Origin: Betaproteobacteria bacterium
GTDB lineage: Bacteria > Pseudomonadota > Gammaproteobacteria > Burkholderiales > SG8-41
Reading direction: 5' to 3'
Assembly: GCA_016202605.1 (NCBI GenBank)
Contig: JACQOJ010000099.1
Span: 1 to 48,209, forward strand
DNA length: 48,209 nt
A program made the position numbers and the translations under genes. Numbering within the stretch: position 1 is the stretch's first letter; the number at the start of each line of letters is the position of its first letter. Below the pieces are notes generated by a model. The model was given only the letters and a program-made list of their open reading frames with translations. It did not search any database and was not told the DNA's origin. This document shows positions 27,474-33,937 of this stretch, one piece after another.

Positions 27474-28049
27474 ATGTCTTCCAATTACTCCAAGAATGCG
27501 CTGATGACGTTTTTGGACACAATGGTCGCAAAGGGATTGATGAATGCCAATACGGCCAACGGCTTGAAAGCAGCTTGCGCCAAAATCTTGGACGATGTCG
27601 CAGATAACGATGATGTGCGGGGAATTGATGTCAATACGGCCGTCATTCGCTATAACAACCGGAATCCCGGGACCCTCGCTCCAAACAGCCTTGCCGAGTA
27701 CAAGCGGCGGGTTTCACGAGCGATTTCGGACTTTGTAAGTTGGGTCGATAACCCTGCTGCTTTCAAGCCGCGGAGCCGTGAGGCACCTGCAAAAAACGGA
27801 CGGCAAGTCGAGACCACAGCCAAGAAACGCCCTGCCGCTCATGGTCGAGATGCGCCTGTGCCTCCTAATCATGTTGCACCGACCGTTTCTGCATCGGCCG
27901 GCCTGCCACTGAGTTATCCGCTAAGGCCGGACTTCCTCGCGCAAGTGGTTATTCCTCGTGACCTGACGGCGGATGAGGCCCGGCGGCTTGGGGCATTTCT
28001 GCTTACGCTTGCTACGGACTTTCGGCCTGCAGGTTTTGGTGACAAGTAA
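27474..28049 (+). CDS. hypothetical protein; N-terminal region resembles an integrase SAM-like/core-binding fold
   Basis: RBS gaaaggag before MSSNYSKN; AT-rich upstream region; LAPNSLAEYKRRVSRAISDFVSW. Confidence 0.6.
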   Translation: MSSNYSKNALMTFLDTMVAKGLMNANTANGLKAACAKILDDVADNDDVRGIDVNTAVIRYNNRNPGTLAPNSLAEYKRRVSRAISDFVSWVDNPAAFKPRSREAPAKNGRQVETTAKKRPAAHGRDAPVPPNHVAPTVSASAGLPLSYPLRPDFLAQVVIPRDLTADEARRLGAFLLTLATDFRPAGFGDK

Positions 28050-28059
28050 GGGGCGGCAA

Positions 28060-28575
28060 ATGACACCGTCCGAATCCCCCGTATCTGTTGCTTCCATTGA
28101 ACGTTGTATTTTCCTGTTGCGCGGGCATCGTATCATTCTGAACGGCGATCTGGCCGTTTTTTACGATGTCGAACCGCGCACGCTGTCTCAGGCGGTAAAA
28201 CGGAACCCTGGTCGGTTTCCAGAAGATTTCATGTTCGTTTTAACCGACGCGGAGTGGCAAAACTTGAAGTCACAAAATGTGATTTCAAGTTGGGGAGGTC
28301 CCCGTTCCCTTCCGATGGCATTTACGGAACAAGGGGTGGCCATGCTCTCCAGCGTGTTGCGCAGCGAACGCGCCGTGCAGGTAAACATCCAGATCATGCG
28401 TGCCTTCGTACAAATGCGCCGTGTCCTCGCTGAGCACAAGGATCTGGCCGTAAAGCTCGACGCGCTCGAGCGGAAATATGACGCCCAGTTCAAGGTCGTG
28501 TTTGATGCCATCCGGCAGATGATGGCGCCGCCGCCGGAAAAGAAGCGACGCACAGGATTCGTGCAAGACGAGTGA
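28060..28575 (+). CDS. ORF6N domain-containing protein
   Basis: IFLLRGHRIILNGDLAVFYDVEPRTLSQAVKRNPGRFPEDFMFVLTDAE...PMAFTEQGVAMLSSVL. Confidence 0.93.
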   Translation: MTPSESPVSVASIERCIFLLRGHRIILNGDLAVFYDVEPRTLSQAVKRNPGRFPEDFMFVLTDAEWQNLKSQNVISSWGGPRSLPMAFTEQGVAMLSSVLRSERAVQVNIQIMRAFVQMRRVLAEHKDLAVKLDALERKYDAQFKVVFDAIRQMMAPPPEKKRRTGFVQDE

Positions 28576-28621: not shown

Positions 28622-30352
28622 ATGAAGGCGTCAATCCGTAAGAATATGGCCAGCAAGCAAAAACTCGAACTCACTTGGATCGGGAAGGAGAACCGGCCGA
28701 AGCTGGAGCCGCGGATTCTGCTCGAAGACCCGGCGAAGTCGTACCACGCCAAGCATCGGGTTACCGACAACGACTTGTTCGATAACCGGCTCATTTTCGG
28801 TGACAACCTGCTTGCGCTGAAAGCGCTGGCACAAGAGTTCACGGGCAAGGTCAAGTGCATCTATATTGATCCGCCATATAACACGGGCTCGGCGTTTACC
28901 CACTACGATGACGGCATTGAGCATTCGCTCTGGCTCACGTTGATAAGGGCAAGACTTGAGATACTTTGGTCATTGCTGAGCCAGGACGGATCATTATGGA
29001 TCTCGATCGATGACGACGAGATGCCTTATTTGCGCGTACTAATGGATGAGATTGTCGGCAGAGGCAATTTCATAGCACAGAATATTTGGCAGAAGCGCTA
29101 CTCTCGTGAGAATCGAGAGGCAATAGGCGATGTTCATGAGTATGTCATCGTATATGCGAAGGACCCTGTAGGTTTTAAGGAGCGACGTAACAAAGTTCCG
29201 CTAACCGACGAGCAGGCAAAGGTATACAAGAATCCCAACAACGATCCGAAGGGGCGTTGGCGGTCAATTCCAATGACAGCACAGGAGGGGCACGCTACAC
29301 CTGACCAGTTTTATGAAATCGTTGCTCCTGGTGGGAAGGTGCACAAACCTTCCGAGGGACGTTGCTGGGCGCTGTCAAAGAAAACCTTCGAGAAACTCCG
29401 ATCTGAGGGTCGAATTTGGTTTGGGAAGGACGGAAATTCGCAGCCGAACGTCATTCGCTATCTTTCGGAAGTTGAGGGGGTAGTCCCGTGGACATGGTGG
29501 CCAAGCGATGAGGTTGGCCATACTGACGAGTCTAAGAAAGAGATTCATGCATTATTTGGGAAGATCGATGCCTTCGACACCCCCAAGCCCGAACGACTGA
29601 TGAGTCGTATTCTGACGATCGCGACCAATCCTGGCGATCTCGTCCTCGACTCTTTTGCGGGTTCCGGCACCACCGGCGCTGTCGCCCACAAGATGGGCCG
29701 CCGCTGGATCATGGTGGAACTCGGCGAGCACTGCCACACGCACATCATTCCGCGCCTGAAAAAGGTTATCGATGGCGAGGACCCGGGCGGCATTACCGAT
29801 GCGGTCGGATGGAAAGGCGGTGGCGGGTTCCGCTACTACCGGCTCGCGTCGTCGCTGTTGGAGAAGGACAAATGGGGAAATTGGGTGATCAACAAGCAGT
29901 ACAAGGCTGCGATGCTCGCTGAGGCGCTGTGCAAGCTGGAAGGGTTTACCTACGCGCCGAGCGATTCGGTGTACTGGCAGCACGGTCACTCCACCGAGCG
30001 GGATTTCATCTATGTCACCACCGCCCACCTGAGCCACGAGCAGCTCCGGCAGTTGAGCGACGAGGTTGGGCCGGAGCGCTCATTGCTTGTGCTTTGCACC
30101 GCTTTCCGCGGGCGCGGTGACTACCCGAACCTCACGGTGAAGAAAATTCCCAAGCAGGTGCTCTCGCGCTGCGAGTGGGGTCACGACGACTACAGCCTGC
30201 AAGTGGAGAACCTGCCAAGAGCGGAACCGGTTGCCCTCACCCCCGTCCCCTCTCCCGAAGGGCGAGGGGAGAAAAGCGCTCACCCTGACCCCCTCCCCTC
30301 GGGGGAGGGAAAAAAAGCAAATCCGGGGCAGCAGACGTTGGATCTCGCGTAA
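28622..30352 (+). CDS. mod: type III restriction-modification DNA methyltransferase (Mod)
   Basis: DPPYNTG catalytic motif; FAGSGTTG AdoMet motif; GDNLLALKAL; beta-class order. Confidence 0.93.
   Translation: MKASIRKNMASKQKLELTWIGKENRPKLEPRILLEDPAKSYHAKHRVTDNDLFDNRLIFGDNLLALKALAQEFTGKVKCIYIDPPYNTGSAFTHYDDGIEHSLWLTLIRARLEILWSLLSQDGSLWISIDDDEMPYLRVLMDEIVGRGNFIAQNIWQKRYSRENREAIGDVHEYVIVYAKDPVGFKERRNKVPLTDEQAKVYKNPNNDPKGRWRSIPMTAQEGHATPDQFYEIVAPGGKVHKPSEGRCWALSKKTFEKLRSEGRIWFGKDGNSQPNVIRYLSEVEGVVPWTWWPSDEVGHTDESKKEIHALFGKIDAFDTPKPERLMSRILTIATNPGDLVLDSFAGSGTTGAVAHKMGRRWIMVELGEHCHTHIIPRLKKVIDGEDPGGITDAVGWKGGGGFRYYRLASSLLEKDKWGNWVINKQYKAAMLAEALCKLEGFTYAPSDSVYWQHGHSTERDFIYVTTAHLSHEQLRQLSDEVGPERSLLVLCTAFRGRGDYPNLTVKKIPKQVLSRCEWGHDDYSLQVENLPRAEPVALTPVPSPEGRGEKSAHPDPLPSGEGKKANPGQQTLDLA
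30233..30310. repeat. REP-like element of two GC-rich hairpins inside the mod coding sequence
   Basis: cccctctcccgaagggcgagggg (30247-30269) and ccctcccctcgggggaggg (about 30291-30309) form adjacent hairpins. Confidence 0.8.
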
Positions 30353-30366
30353 CGCAGGCAGATGCC

Positions 30367-31023
30367 ATGCAGCGGGGTCGATACAAGGCGGTGGGGCCGG
30401 AAGCTGAGTTCGAACCCGGCTCGCGCGGTCGCGTGCTGCGGAATCTGCTTGGCATTCGGTCGGTGCGCGAGATGGCACGCCGCGAATCAGATGCATTGAT
30501 CGCGGCAACGGACCGATTGCTCGATGAAACGAGAATGGATCAGCGTTTTACCGCGAAAGACATCTGTCGGATACACAAGCTTTGGCTTGAGGGTGTTTAC
30601 ACCTGGGCCGGGCAGTATCGTACTGTCAACGTAACCAAAAGAGGGTTCACGTTTGCGGCGGCAGAACAGGTGCCGCGGCTGATGCGAGAGCTCGAATCAG
30701 GGCCGCTAAGGAAGTACACGCCATGCCAGTTTATGGCTGCGGACGAGCTTTCTCTCGCGTTAGCCGTGGTTCACGCGGAACTGATATTGGTTCATCCGTT
30801 CCGCGAAGGAAATGGGCGTTGCGCGCGTGTCCTCGCGACGTTCATGGGATTTCAGAGTGGATTGCCAGGCTTGAATTTCTGGGGGGTGCGCGGAAAAGAG
30901 AAGCAGCACTACATTGCCGCGATTCATGCGGCAATGGATCGCGATTACGCACCGATGACGGCGGTGTTTCGCCGTGTCATCGCCCAGACTCTGCGATTAC
31001 AGGCTAACGCTTTATCGGGATGA
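30367..31023 (+). CDS. Fic/DOC family protein (putative AMPylase toxin)
   Basis: Canonical HPFREGNGR Fic motif; TWAGQYRTVNVTKRGFTFAAA beta-flap region. Confidence 0.93.
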   Translation: MQRGRYKAVGPEAEFEPGSRGRVLRNLLGIRSVREMARRESDALIAATDRLLDETRMDQRFTAKDICRIHKLWLEGVYTWAGQYRTVNVTKRGFTFAAAEQVPRLMRELESGPLRKYTPCQFMAADELSLALAVVHAELILVHPFREGNGRCARVLATFMGFQSGLPGLNFWGVRGKEKQHYIAAIHAAMDRDYAPMTAVFRRVIAQTLRLQANALSG

Positions 31024-31216
31024 GGGAGATCTTGGCAGCCAACTTGCTCTGCCCGCTGGCCGTTGTCGCAGAGTCGGGTTGTAGATGCGTCAATTGCTTG
31101 AAGGGTGCCCGAATACCTTCAATTGCAGAGGAGCTGGCTACTGACGTGAAGACAGCATGCTTGCGCAAGACGGGATCGCGCAGGTAGGGGTTGGTAGTGG
31201 AAAGCTTTGAACTCAT
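31004..31216 (-). CDS. small putative Fic antitoxin with [ST]xxxE[GN] inhibitory motif
   Basis: MSSKLSTTNPYLRDPVLRKHAVFTSVASSSAIEGIRAPF: S-S-A-I-E-G matches the Fic inhibitory helix motif; convergent with fic. Confidence 0.7.
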   Translation of the reverse strand: MSSKLSTTNPYLRDPVLRKHAVFTSVASSSAIEGIRAPFKQLTHLQPDSATTASGQSKLAAKISLIPIKR

Positions 31217-31255
31217 GGATAAATTATAACATTGAACCGCTCTCGAGTCGCATAG

Positions 31256-33937
31256 ATGAACCGTCACGTAAACGCCATCGCCGGCCGTTTGAGCCTGCGC
31301 CCGCCCCAGCGGCGGTCGCTTGAAATCCTCAACCGCGTCACGGAAATCGCGCCGCCGACAAAGGGCGCGGACATCGAGGCGGCGCTGGCGGCGATTCGCA
31401 GCGAGTTCCCGTCCGTGGCGGATTTCGAGCGTGATTTTCCATCACTGTGCTTCGCGCTGGCGACGGGGGTGGGCAAGACGCGGCTAATGGGCGCCTTCAT
31501 CAGCTACCTGCACCTCGCGCACGGAATCTGCAATTTCTTCGTCCTCGCGCCCAACCTCACGATCTACAACAAGCTGATCACCGACTTTACCCCGAACACT
31601 CCGAAGTACGTGTTCAAGGGCATTGCCGAGTTTGCCACCGATGCGCCGGCGATCATCAACGGCGACAACTACGAGCAGACCGCCACCGAGGCCCTGTTCG
31701 GACGAGTCCGGGTCAACATCTTCAACATTTCGAAGATCAATTCCGAGGTGCGCGGCGGCAGGTCGCCCCGCATCAAGCGGCTGTCGGAATACATCGGCGA
31801 GAGCTATTTCGATTACCTGGCAGGGCTGCCCGATCTGGTGCTCCTGATGGACGAGTCGCACCGCTACCGCGCGAGCGCGGGCGTGCGGGCGATCAACGAG
31901 CTCAAACCGATCCTCGGCCTGGAGCTGACCGCGACACCGTTCATAGAGACGAGCAGGGGATCGGTGGCGTTCAAGAATGTCGTCCTCGACTACCCGCTCG
32001 GTCGCGCGATGGCCGACGGTTTCGTGAAGGAGCCCGCAGTCGTCACGCGCAAGAACTTCAACCCGACCGGCATGTCGCCGGAGGAGGTCGAGCGGCTGAA
32101 GCTTGAGGACGGTATCCGCCTGCATGAGAGCGTCAAGGTCGAACTGGAGACCTACGCGCGCGAGTCGGACCAACCGATCGTCAAGCCGTTCCTGCTGGTG
32201 ATCGCGCGCGACACGACACACGCCGGACAATTGCTCCAGTTGATCCAGTCCGAGACCTTTTTCGAAGGCCGCTACAAGGATAAGGTCATCCAGGTCGACT
32301 CCAGCAGGACGGGGGCCGAGGAAGAGGCGATGATCGAGCGGCTGCTCAAGGTGGAACACACCGAGGAGCCGACCGAGATCGTGATCCACGTCAACATGCT
32401 GAAGGAAGGCTGGGATGTCACGAACCTCTATACCATCGTGCCGCTGCGCGCCGCCAATGCCCGCATCCTGATTGAGCAGTCCATTGGCCGCGGGCTGCGT
32501 CTTCCCTACGGCAAGCGTACGGGCGTGACTGCGGTGGACCGGCTCAACATCGTCGCGCATGATAGGTTCCAGGAGATCATCGATGAGGCCAACAAGCCGG
32601 ATTCCGCAATCCGATTGCGGGCGGTGGTGCTGGATACCGAGCAGCTTGGCCAAAAAACCGCGACGGTGGTCTCGCAATCCCTGCTCGCGACCAGGCTCGG
32701 GCTCCAGCCACCCCGGGTGACAAGCAGCACGACGCTGGGCGGTCAAAGCGAACCCCCCGTATTCAGCAAGCCGGAAGACCAACAGGCGGCGCAGATCGCC
32801 TATGCGGTCATCTGTAAACTGGAGAACGAGCCACAGACACTGCCATCGGTCGAATACCTCAAAAGGCCGGAAATCCAGGCTGCGATCGTGAAGGCCGTCG
32901 AGGAACGGCGTGCACCAACACAATTGGAACTGGAAGGAGTCACTGAAAAACCGGATATCGCCGCCGTGGTGGCGAGGACCGTGGAACAGTTTGTGCAGGA
33001 TACGATCAGCATCCCGCGCATTCAGGTGGTGCCCAAAGGTGAGGTGAAATCGGGTTTCAGGCCGTTCCGGTTGAAGCTCGGCGCTCTCCGCTATCCGGCT
33101 GTGTCCGATGAACTCTGGGTTCAGTATCTGCGTACAGGTGGGACGGAGGTTGTGGCGTTGGGCCGGGGCGGATTGGAGGAATCGAGGCTCGAAGACTATG
33201 TGGTGAGCGGTCTCGTGGACTTCGACGATATCTCCTACGACGACCACGCCGATCTGCTTTACGACCTTGCGACGCAGACCGTGGCGCACTTTCGTGGGTA
33301 CCTCTCCGAGGACGACGCCCGCAAGGTGCTGCGCTGTTACCAGCGCGACATCGCGCGCTTCATCCATGCACAGATGCAGGAGCACTATTGGGAGGAAGTT
33401 GGTGGTTACGAAGTGAAGGTCAGCAAGGGCTTCACGGAGTTGAAGCAAAGGGCCTATACGCAAACGGCGCAGGAGCCGCTGGCTGACTATCGGATATCGC
33501 CGGAGGACAAGAGCAACATGGCGAAGTACTTGTTTGGTGGCTTCACGCGCTGCCTGTATTCTGAGGAGAAGTTCGGTTCAGATGCGGAGCGCAGACTGGC
33601 GGTGATTCTCGAACGCGAAGCGATCAAATGGTTCAAGCCCGCCAAGGGCCAGTTCCAGATTTTCTACCGGCAGGGGGTGGATCACCCGGAGTATCAGCCA
33701 GATTTTGTCGCGGAGAGTTCCGACACGGTTTACATGCTTGAGCCCAAAATGCGGAAAGAACTCGAAGATCCCGTCGTCCTCGCGAAAAAGGATGCCGCCG
33801 TGAAATGGTGCGCAAACGCATCCGATCATGCCGCAAGCTACGGCGGCAAGCCGTGGCGCTACGCGCTTATTCCGCACGACGTCATTGCAGAGAACATGAC
33901 GCTTGGAGCGTTGGCAAAGGAATTCGGCTGCAGCTAA
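31256..33937 (+). CDS. res: type III restriction endonuclease subunit (Res), DEAD-like helicase with C-terminal PD-ExK nuclease
   Basis: FALATGVGKTRLM; LLMDESHRYR; LELTATP; QSIGRGLRLP; C-terminal YQPDFVAESSDTVYMLEPK. Confidence 0.92.
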   Translation: MNRHVNAIAGRLSLRPPQRRSLEILNRVTEIAPPTKGADIEAALAAIRSEFPSVADFERDFPSLCFALATGVGKTRLMGAFISYLHLAHGICNFFVLAPNLTIYNKLITDFTPNTPKYVFKGIAEFATDAPAIINGDNYEQTATEALFGRVRVNIFNISKINSEVRGGRSPRIKRLSEYIGESYFDYLAGLPDLVLLMDESHRYRASAGVRAINELKPILGLELTATPFIETSRGSVAFKNVVLDYPLGRAMADGFVKEPAVVTRKNFNPTGMSPEEVERLKLEDGIRLHESVKVELETYARESDQPIVKPFLLVIARDTTHAGQLLQLIQSETFFEGRYKDKVIQVDSSRTGAEEEAMIERLLKVEHTEEPTEIVIHVNMLKEGWDVTNLYTIVPLRAANARILIEQSIGRGLRLPYGKRTGVTAVDRLNIVAHDRFQEIIDEANKPDSAIRLRAVVLDTEQLGQKTATVVSQSLLATRLGLQPPRVTSSTTLGGQSEPPVFSKPEDQQAAQIAYAVICKLENEPQTLPSVEYLKRPEIQAAIVKAVEERRAPTQLELEGVTEKPDIAAVVARTVEQFVQDTISIPRIQVVPKGEVKSGFRPFRLKLGALRYPAVSDELWVQYLRTGGTEVVALGRGGLEESRLEDYVVSGLVDFDDISYDDHADLLYDLATQTVAHFRGYLSEDDARKVLRCYQRDIARFIHAQMQEHYWEEVGGYEVKVSKGFTELKQRAYTQTAQEPLADYRISPEDKSNMAKYLFGGFTRCLYSEEKFGSDAERRLAVILEREAIKWFKPAKGQFQIFYRQGVDHPEYQPDFVAESSDTVYMLEPKMRKELEDPVVLAKKDAAVKWCANASDHAASYGGKPWRYALIPHDVIAENMTLGALAKEFGCS

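What the first reader, a model, noticed from the sequence alone, without database searches (positions are those of the whole stretch)
30367..31267. Fic toxin with a convergent antisense candidate antitoxin, lodged between mod and res
fic (HPFREGNGR) starts 14 bp after mod. A 70-aa gene on the opposite strand overlaps its 3' end by about 20 bp and carries SSAIEG, matching the [ST]xxxE[GN] inhibitory helix. Known class I antitoxins are usually upstream on the same strand. Here the antitoxin is convergent with fic and divergent (about 40 bp) from res, so its promoter region is shared with res. This could tie restriction expression to toxin neutralisation.
Basis: partly seen in the sequence, partly recalled or inferred. 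Interest (0 to 1): 0.66.

Follow-up and report, generated by a model that had tools for sequence, protein, structure and literature searches.

The report
Fic toxin–antitoxin pair inside restriction operons
A bacterial growth-stopping enzyme (Fic) and its small antidote, coded head-on from opposite strands, sit between the two genes of a DNA-restriction system; this head-on pairing is already known and is the rule for this Fic family, but relatives show the pair repeatedly sits just in front of the restriction gene and that the antidote has its own built-in start signal.

Summary
Fic itself has no inhibitory motif. This is a class I FicTA pair. The convergent layout is not new: FicY/AntY of Yersinia (PMC7479194) is convergent and biochemically shown. 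I found a convergent ant at all 26 Fic relatives examined, never an upstream one. New here: (1) the exact mod-fic><ant-res layout recurs in five other genomes, and an equivalent hsdS-fic><ant-hsdR layout in type I systems, in both Fic clades; (2) the mod-res junction is an exchangeable slot (Fic/Ant, YhcG nuclease, zeta, PIN or nothing); (3) window-type ants have a -10 box 6-7 nt before ATG (17/22; shuffles 0.6) and almost no Shine-Dalgarno, predicting leaderless mRNA from their own promoter. A promoter shared with res is not supported by conservation; the conserved element in the gap is ant's. Best reading: an AntY-like FicTA module carried as cargo in restriction operons. Inhibition and toxicity are untested here.

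The parts
30367..31023 (+). fic: 218-aa Fic-domain AMP-transferase-type toxin, HPFREGNGR intact, no [ST]xxxE[GNT] motif of its own
   Evidence: Pfam PF02661 E 4e-18; PADLOC PDC-S04 E 3e-69; motif scan empty; AF2 model pLDDT 79 matches VbhT, EcFicT and Fic-1 folds
31004..31216 (-). ant: 70-aa antitoxin, TNPYLRDP N-terminus, SSSAIEG inhibitory-helix motif, low-confidence C-terminal tail
   Evidence: homologs at 67%/65% identity, convergent with fic in all Fic relatives, pN/pS 0.20-0.35, invariant S29/E33/G34, helix 15-28 in model
31223..31231 (-). predicted extended -10 promoter of ant (TGTTATAAT); predicted +1 is the A of the ant ATG (31216), i.e. leaderless mRNA
   Evidence: -10 at 6-7 nt before ATG in 17 of 22 window-type homologs, shuffle mean 0.56, max 4 in 5000; no Shine-Dalgarno in 21 of 22
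31217..31255 (.). 39-bp head-to-head gap ant/res (27-45 bp in five relatives)
28622..30352 (+). mod, type III methyltransferase; fic starts 14 bp downstream
   Evidence: PADLOC MTase_III E 1e-214
31256..33937 (+). res, type III restriction subunit
   Evidence: PADLOC REase_III E 2.5e-202
27973..28575 (+). ORF6N-domain gene upstream of mod (PADLOC PDC-S05); neighbour, membership in the unit not shown

Best explanation
This is a class I FicTA toxin-antitoxin module of the convergent (AntY-like) kind, carried as exchangeable cargo at the junction between the modification and restriction genes of a type III R-M operon. Fic, expressed as the distal part of a mod-fic transcript, is predicted to AMPylate a host target, most likely GyrB/ParE, by analogy with Fic-1 and FicY. 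Ant, made independently from its own extended -10 promoter as a leaderless mRNA, binds Fic and places its SxxxEG glutamate against bound ATP, so the active site is held off (or, as for Fic-1-AntF, the complex may even deAMPylate). When Ant runs out (locus loss or blocked transcription), Fic would arrest the cell, stabilising the R-M unit and possibly acting as a backup to restriction. Shown here: gene content, conservation, recurrent layout, motif, promoter-like element. Inferred: inhibition, target, leaderless transcription, purpose.
For: Fic domain with intact catalytic motif and no own inhibitory motif; fold matches VbhT-VbhA, EcFicT-EcFicA, Fic-1-AntF. Ant: invariant SxxxEG, purifying selection. 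Convergent ant at 26 of 26 distinct Fic relatives, plus E. coli and Citrobacter copies annotated as 'hypothetical protein'. Published precedent: antY convergent with ficY, AntY inhibits FicY on ParE dose-dependently. mod-fic><ant-res in five further genomes; hsdS-fic><ant-hsdR in L026 and L067, fic><ant-hsdR in L063, and L064 with one extra ORF. Cargo exchange: relatives of this res have YhcG nuclease, zeta, PIN or nothing in the slot, and one YhcG-bearing res nests inside the Fic-bearing clade at 100/99. Conserved ant promoter. Toxin decayed with antitoxin kept in E. coli L077, and orphan ants elsewhere, as expected for TA.
Against: No toxicity, binding or transcription data. The Ant model is low confidence (pLDDT 64.5) and no complex could be folded here. 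The Ant-AntY similarity is confined to 18 columns (probability 80%), so homology over the whole protein is not shown; FicY itself was not in the collections. A different PDC-S04 member showed no phage defence in its native host (PMC12409345). Upstream-on-same-strand, the usual FicTA layout, is not met. Most loci are MAG contigs.
Confidence: 0.75

Rival explanations
1. Antitoxin expression is wired to restriction: overlapping transcription at the ant/res junction sets Fic activity according to R-M operon activity (read-through of mod-fic-res silences ant, or ant RNA/promoter throttles res), giving a built-in fail-safe.
For: ant is head-to-head with the R gene in both type III and type I loci and in two Fic clades; the gap is only 27-45 bp in type III, so RNA polymerase on the ant promoter would cover the res start.
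Against: The ant promoter is equally present where there is no R-M neighbour (L008, L010, L025). No res-side promoter is conserved. About half of the Fic/Ant pairs have no R-M neighbour. Type I gaps are larger.
Confidence: 0.2
2. Pure hitchhiking: defence islands collect TA pairs, and the mod-res junction is just a tolerated insertion site with no functional link.
For: Slot content is swapped freely (YhcG, zeta, PIN, nothing); Fic/Ant pairs also sit next to integrases.
Against: The orientation relative to the R gene recurs in unrelated R-M types, and in a Fic-only sample 4 of 10 loci lie beside type I R-M genes.
Confidence: 0.35
3. The 70-aa ORF is a spurious antisense ORF and the motif is chance.
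For: Short, opposite strand, overlaps fic, no PDB or NCBIfam match.
Against: Conserved across genera with pN/pS no higher than 0.43 in any pair, conserved promoter, annotated relatives next to Fic.
Confidence: 0.02

Closest known systems
FicY-AntY of Yersinia pseudotuberculosis YPIII (PMC7479194)
   Same: Convergent antitoxin downstream of fic, small protein with S/TxxxE motif, separate promoters; AntY inhibits FicY AMPylation of ParE.
   Different: AntY has STAIET and, judging by the identically numbered 52-aa relative L047, no TNPYLRDP N-terminus and no leaderless -10 spacing. R-M context is not discussed in the passages read.
Fic-1-AntF of Pseudomonas fluorescens (PDB 8wt0)
   Same: Closest solved Fic by sequence; AMPylates GyrB and ParE; external antitoxin.
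   Different: antF appears to share a promoter with fic-1; the complex is reported as a deAMPylase by the PDB title.
VbhT-VbhA / EcFicT-EcFicA (class I FicTA)
   Same: FIC fold, antitoxin with [ST]xxxE[GN] helix.
   Different: Antitoxin encoded upstream of fic (stated in the sources read for VbhA and for E. coli Fic).
PADLOC candidate PDC-S04
   Same: fic matches model PDLC04839 at E 3e-69.
   Different: A single-gene candidate in the library; no antitoxin model, and no defence seen for the one PDC-S04 tested in PMC12409345.

Membership tests
Class I Fic (FicTA) toxin-antitoxin | Fic domain with HPFx[D/E]GN[G/K]R | tested here: met
   HPFREGNGR; PF02661
Class I Fic (FicTA) toxin-antitoxin | No inhibitory [ST]xxxE[GN] motif within the Fic protein | tested here: met
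   motif scan of P0002 empty
Class I Fic (FicTA) toxin-antitoxin | Separate small protein with [ST]xxxE[GN] | tested here: met
   S29-SAI-E33-G34, invariant in 14 homologs
Class I Fic (FicTA) toxin-antitoxin | Antitoxin gene upstream, same strand (usual, not required: FicY-AntY) | tested here: not met
   convergent in all 26 relatives; convergent precedent
Class I Fic (FicTA) toxin-antitoxin | Antitoxin binds and inhibits toxin; toxin arrests growth | not testable with these tools
   needs bench work; no complex prediction available
AntY-type convergent antitoxin | Convergent ORF downstream of fic | tested here: met
AntY-type convergent antitoxin | Sequence homology over the protein | tested here: inconclusive
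   hhalign probability 80% over 18 columns against the AntY-like L047 ORF; FicY/AntY sequences not held; their Fics form two clades of one tree
Type III restriction-modification | adjacent mod and res | tested here: met
   PADLOC MTase_III, REase_III
Leaderless mRNA | Transcription start at the start codon | not testable with these tools
   -10 spacing predicts it; needs 5'-end mapping

The most novel reading that the evidence does not exclude
The fic/ant pair is a dedicated fail-safe of restriction operons: ant, a leaderless gene whose promoter opposes the read-through transcript that feeds the R gene, makes Fic activity depend on how the R-M operon is transcribed, so that deregulated or lost restriction triggers arrest. 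The same arrangement would have arisen independently in type I and type III systems.
Probability: 0.15. Interest if true: 0.8.

Novelty: new variant of a known kind. Interest (0 to 1): 0.5.

Why it matters
It turns a single odd locus into a recurrent pattern: a Fic toxin-antitoxin pair placed directly in front of restriction genes of two different R-M types, with an antidote that seems to be made from its own promoter without a leader. It adds a small, mostly unannotated antitoxin family that can be searched for, gives a testable link between restriction and AMPylation toxins, and identifies the mod-res junction as an exchangeable toxin slot.

Tried and rejected
Ant against PDB, NCBIfam, PADLOC: no match; Pfam only sub-threshold Fic_N. 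Ant against plasmids: none. The seven-row ant alignment was too diverged for a contig scan; a three-row one worked. Profile over the phylum: 2 of 399 genomes, so the window-type ant is rare. Close Fic in viral contigs and phage records: none, so not a phage cargo on this evidence. A res promoter in the shared gap: a 5/6 -10 in the window only, not conserved. The generic promoter/terminator scan did not list the ant promoter because it demands a -35. A Fic-Ant co-fold could not be run. 'Chance ORF' rejected by conservation. Literature on Fic in R-M operons: only incidental (Histophilus type I locus listing Fic between hsdS and hsdM).

Full report
Observation. The 87-aa GTG version of ant (to 31267) is less likely than the 70-aa ATG version, because homologs and the promoter agree on the ATG.

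Is ant real? Yes by sequence evidence. Homologs with 65-67% identity over the first about 40 residues occur in other genera. Over the first 40 codons, pN/pS against the window copy is 0.20-0.35 for eight relatives; the median of 35 pairs is 0.31 and the maximum 0.43. In 14 homologs the invariant columns are L5, N9, L12, S29, E33, G34 and P38, which include the three motif residues. The single-chain model has a helix at 15-28 just before the motif and a low-confidence tail (mean pLDDT 64.5).

Is convergence unusual? Not in this family. I examined 26 distinct Fic relatives: the window, L015-L022, L024, L026, L027, L044-L047 and L051-L060 (L023 and L025 carry an ant without fic). Every one has a convergent small ORF of the ant kind and none an upstream one. 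The window plus a motif scan with ATG starts account for 24; L045 and L053 were recognised by eye, L045 with a start other than ATG and L053 with N in place of S/T. E. coli and Citrobacter copies show the partner annotated as 'hypothetical protein'. Convergence is also published: antY is a downstream convergent ORF with S22TAIET27, and AntY inhibits FicY AMPylation of ParE in a dose-dependent way (PMC7479194). The L047 ORF carries STAIET at exactly residues 22-27, so it is probably AntY-like; FicY itself was not available, and the profile match between window-type ants and L047 covers only 18 columns.

Two Fic clades broadly match two ant types: window-type (TNPYLRDP...SSxxEGIRAPF) and AntY-type (SSTAIETG), with intermediates such as L052 and L053.

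Leaderless promoter. In 17 of 22 window-type ants a -10 hexamer (T and A at positions 1-2, T at 6, at least 4 of 6) ends exactly 6 or 7 nt before the ATG; composition shuffles give a mean of 0.56 and a maximum of 4 in 5000. No Shine-Dalgarno-like tetramer occurs in 21 of 22. In the window it is TGTTATAAT, 31223-31231 on the minus strand, which would start the mRNA at the A of the ATG. Eight AntY-type ants show none at this spacing. The rows are related, so the excess is not a formal probability, and the transcript itself is inferred.

R-M context. A scan of one genome from each of 84,980 species with ant as bait found mod-fic><ant-res in L015, L016, L017, L018 and L019. Type I versions: L026 (hsdM-hsdS-fic><ant-hsdR), L067 (hsdM...hsdS-fic><ant-hsdR), L063 (fic><ant-hsdR) and L064 (hsdM-hsdS-fic><ant, one ORF, hsdR); hsdM lies beside the pair in L062 and L024. 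PADLOC confirms the subunits tested. In the ten loci brought in by Fic alone from the window's class, four lie beside type I R-M genes (L062, L063, L064, L067). No formal background rate was computed. So the pair recurs directly 5' of the R gene, ant head-to-head with it, in two R-M types and two Fic clades. About half of the pairs have no R-M neighbour.

The slot. In 13 relatives of this res from the same class, the junction holds nothing (mod and res overlapping or abutting by a few bp; L034, L036, L038, L040, L041), YhcG/DUF1016 nuclease (L031, L042), zeta-like kinase (L033, and by its sequence L037, L039), or PIN (L039, L043); L032 and L035 could not be read. In the res tree L031 (YhcG) nests within the Fic-bearing clade with 100/99 support, so cargo has been exchanged. 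In the Fic tree the R-M-embedded Fics cluster with L021 and L022.

Shared promoter? The gap is 27-45 bp in the six type III loci. The ant -10 is there in all six. A res-side -10 of 5/6 exists only in the window, 4/6 in L016/L018, and nothing convincing in L015. Since mod and res overlap or abut in empty-slot relatives, res is more likely fed by read-through from mod-fic, which runs antisense through ant. Coupling is possible but not shown.

Mechanism. Fic proteins of this kind are held off by a glutamate of an inhibitory helix that prevents productive ATP binding (PMC3667792). The closest solved relative by sequence, 8wt0, is Fic-1-AntF, titled a deAMPylase that regulates DNA gyrase, so the Fic-Ant complex may have a second activity. 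The target GyrB/ParE is inferred by analogy.

Limits. Most loci are MAG contigs. One PDC-S04 protein showed no defence in a native host (PMC12409345), though it need not be of this clade. No binding, toxicity or RNA data exist for this locus.

Noticed in passing
27973-28575: ORF6N-domain gene (PADLOC PDC-S05) lies 46 bp upstream of mod; another candidate-defence single gene next to the R-M operon.
   Followed up: partly
30247-30310: The C-terminal part of mod contains GC-rich palindromic repeat units (CCCCTCTCCCGAAGGGCGAGGGG and similar), found at three other places in this genome with up to 3 mismatches; a dispersed repeat seems to have become part of the mod coding sequence.
   Followed up: partly
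L007 / L023 (around 8001), L025, L014, L028, L009, L011: ant homologs without a detectable fic neighbour; in L023 ant is head-to-head with hsdM and convergent with a DUF4411 gene. Possibly retained antitoxins or antitoxins of other toxins.
   Followed up: partly
L077:6995-7449: E. coli copy in which fic is annotated as frameshifted and incomplete while the convergent ant ORF is intact.
   Followed up: no
L001 (own genome, contig C76): A short Doc/Fic-type ORF and a further broken Fic-domain fragment with a stop codon lie a few hundred bases apart.
   Followed up: no
L031, L033, L037, L039, L042, L043: mod-res junctions of related type III systems carry YhcG nuclease, zeta-type kinase or PIN genes: an exchangeable accessory slot.
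   Followed up: yes
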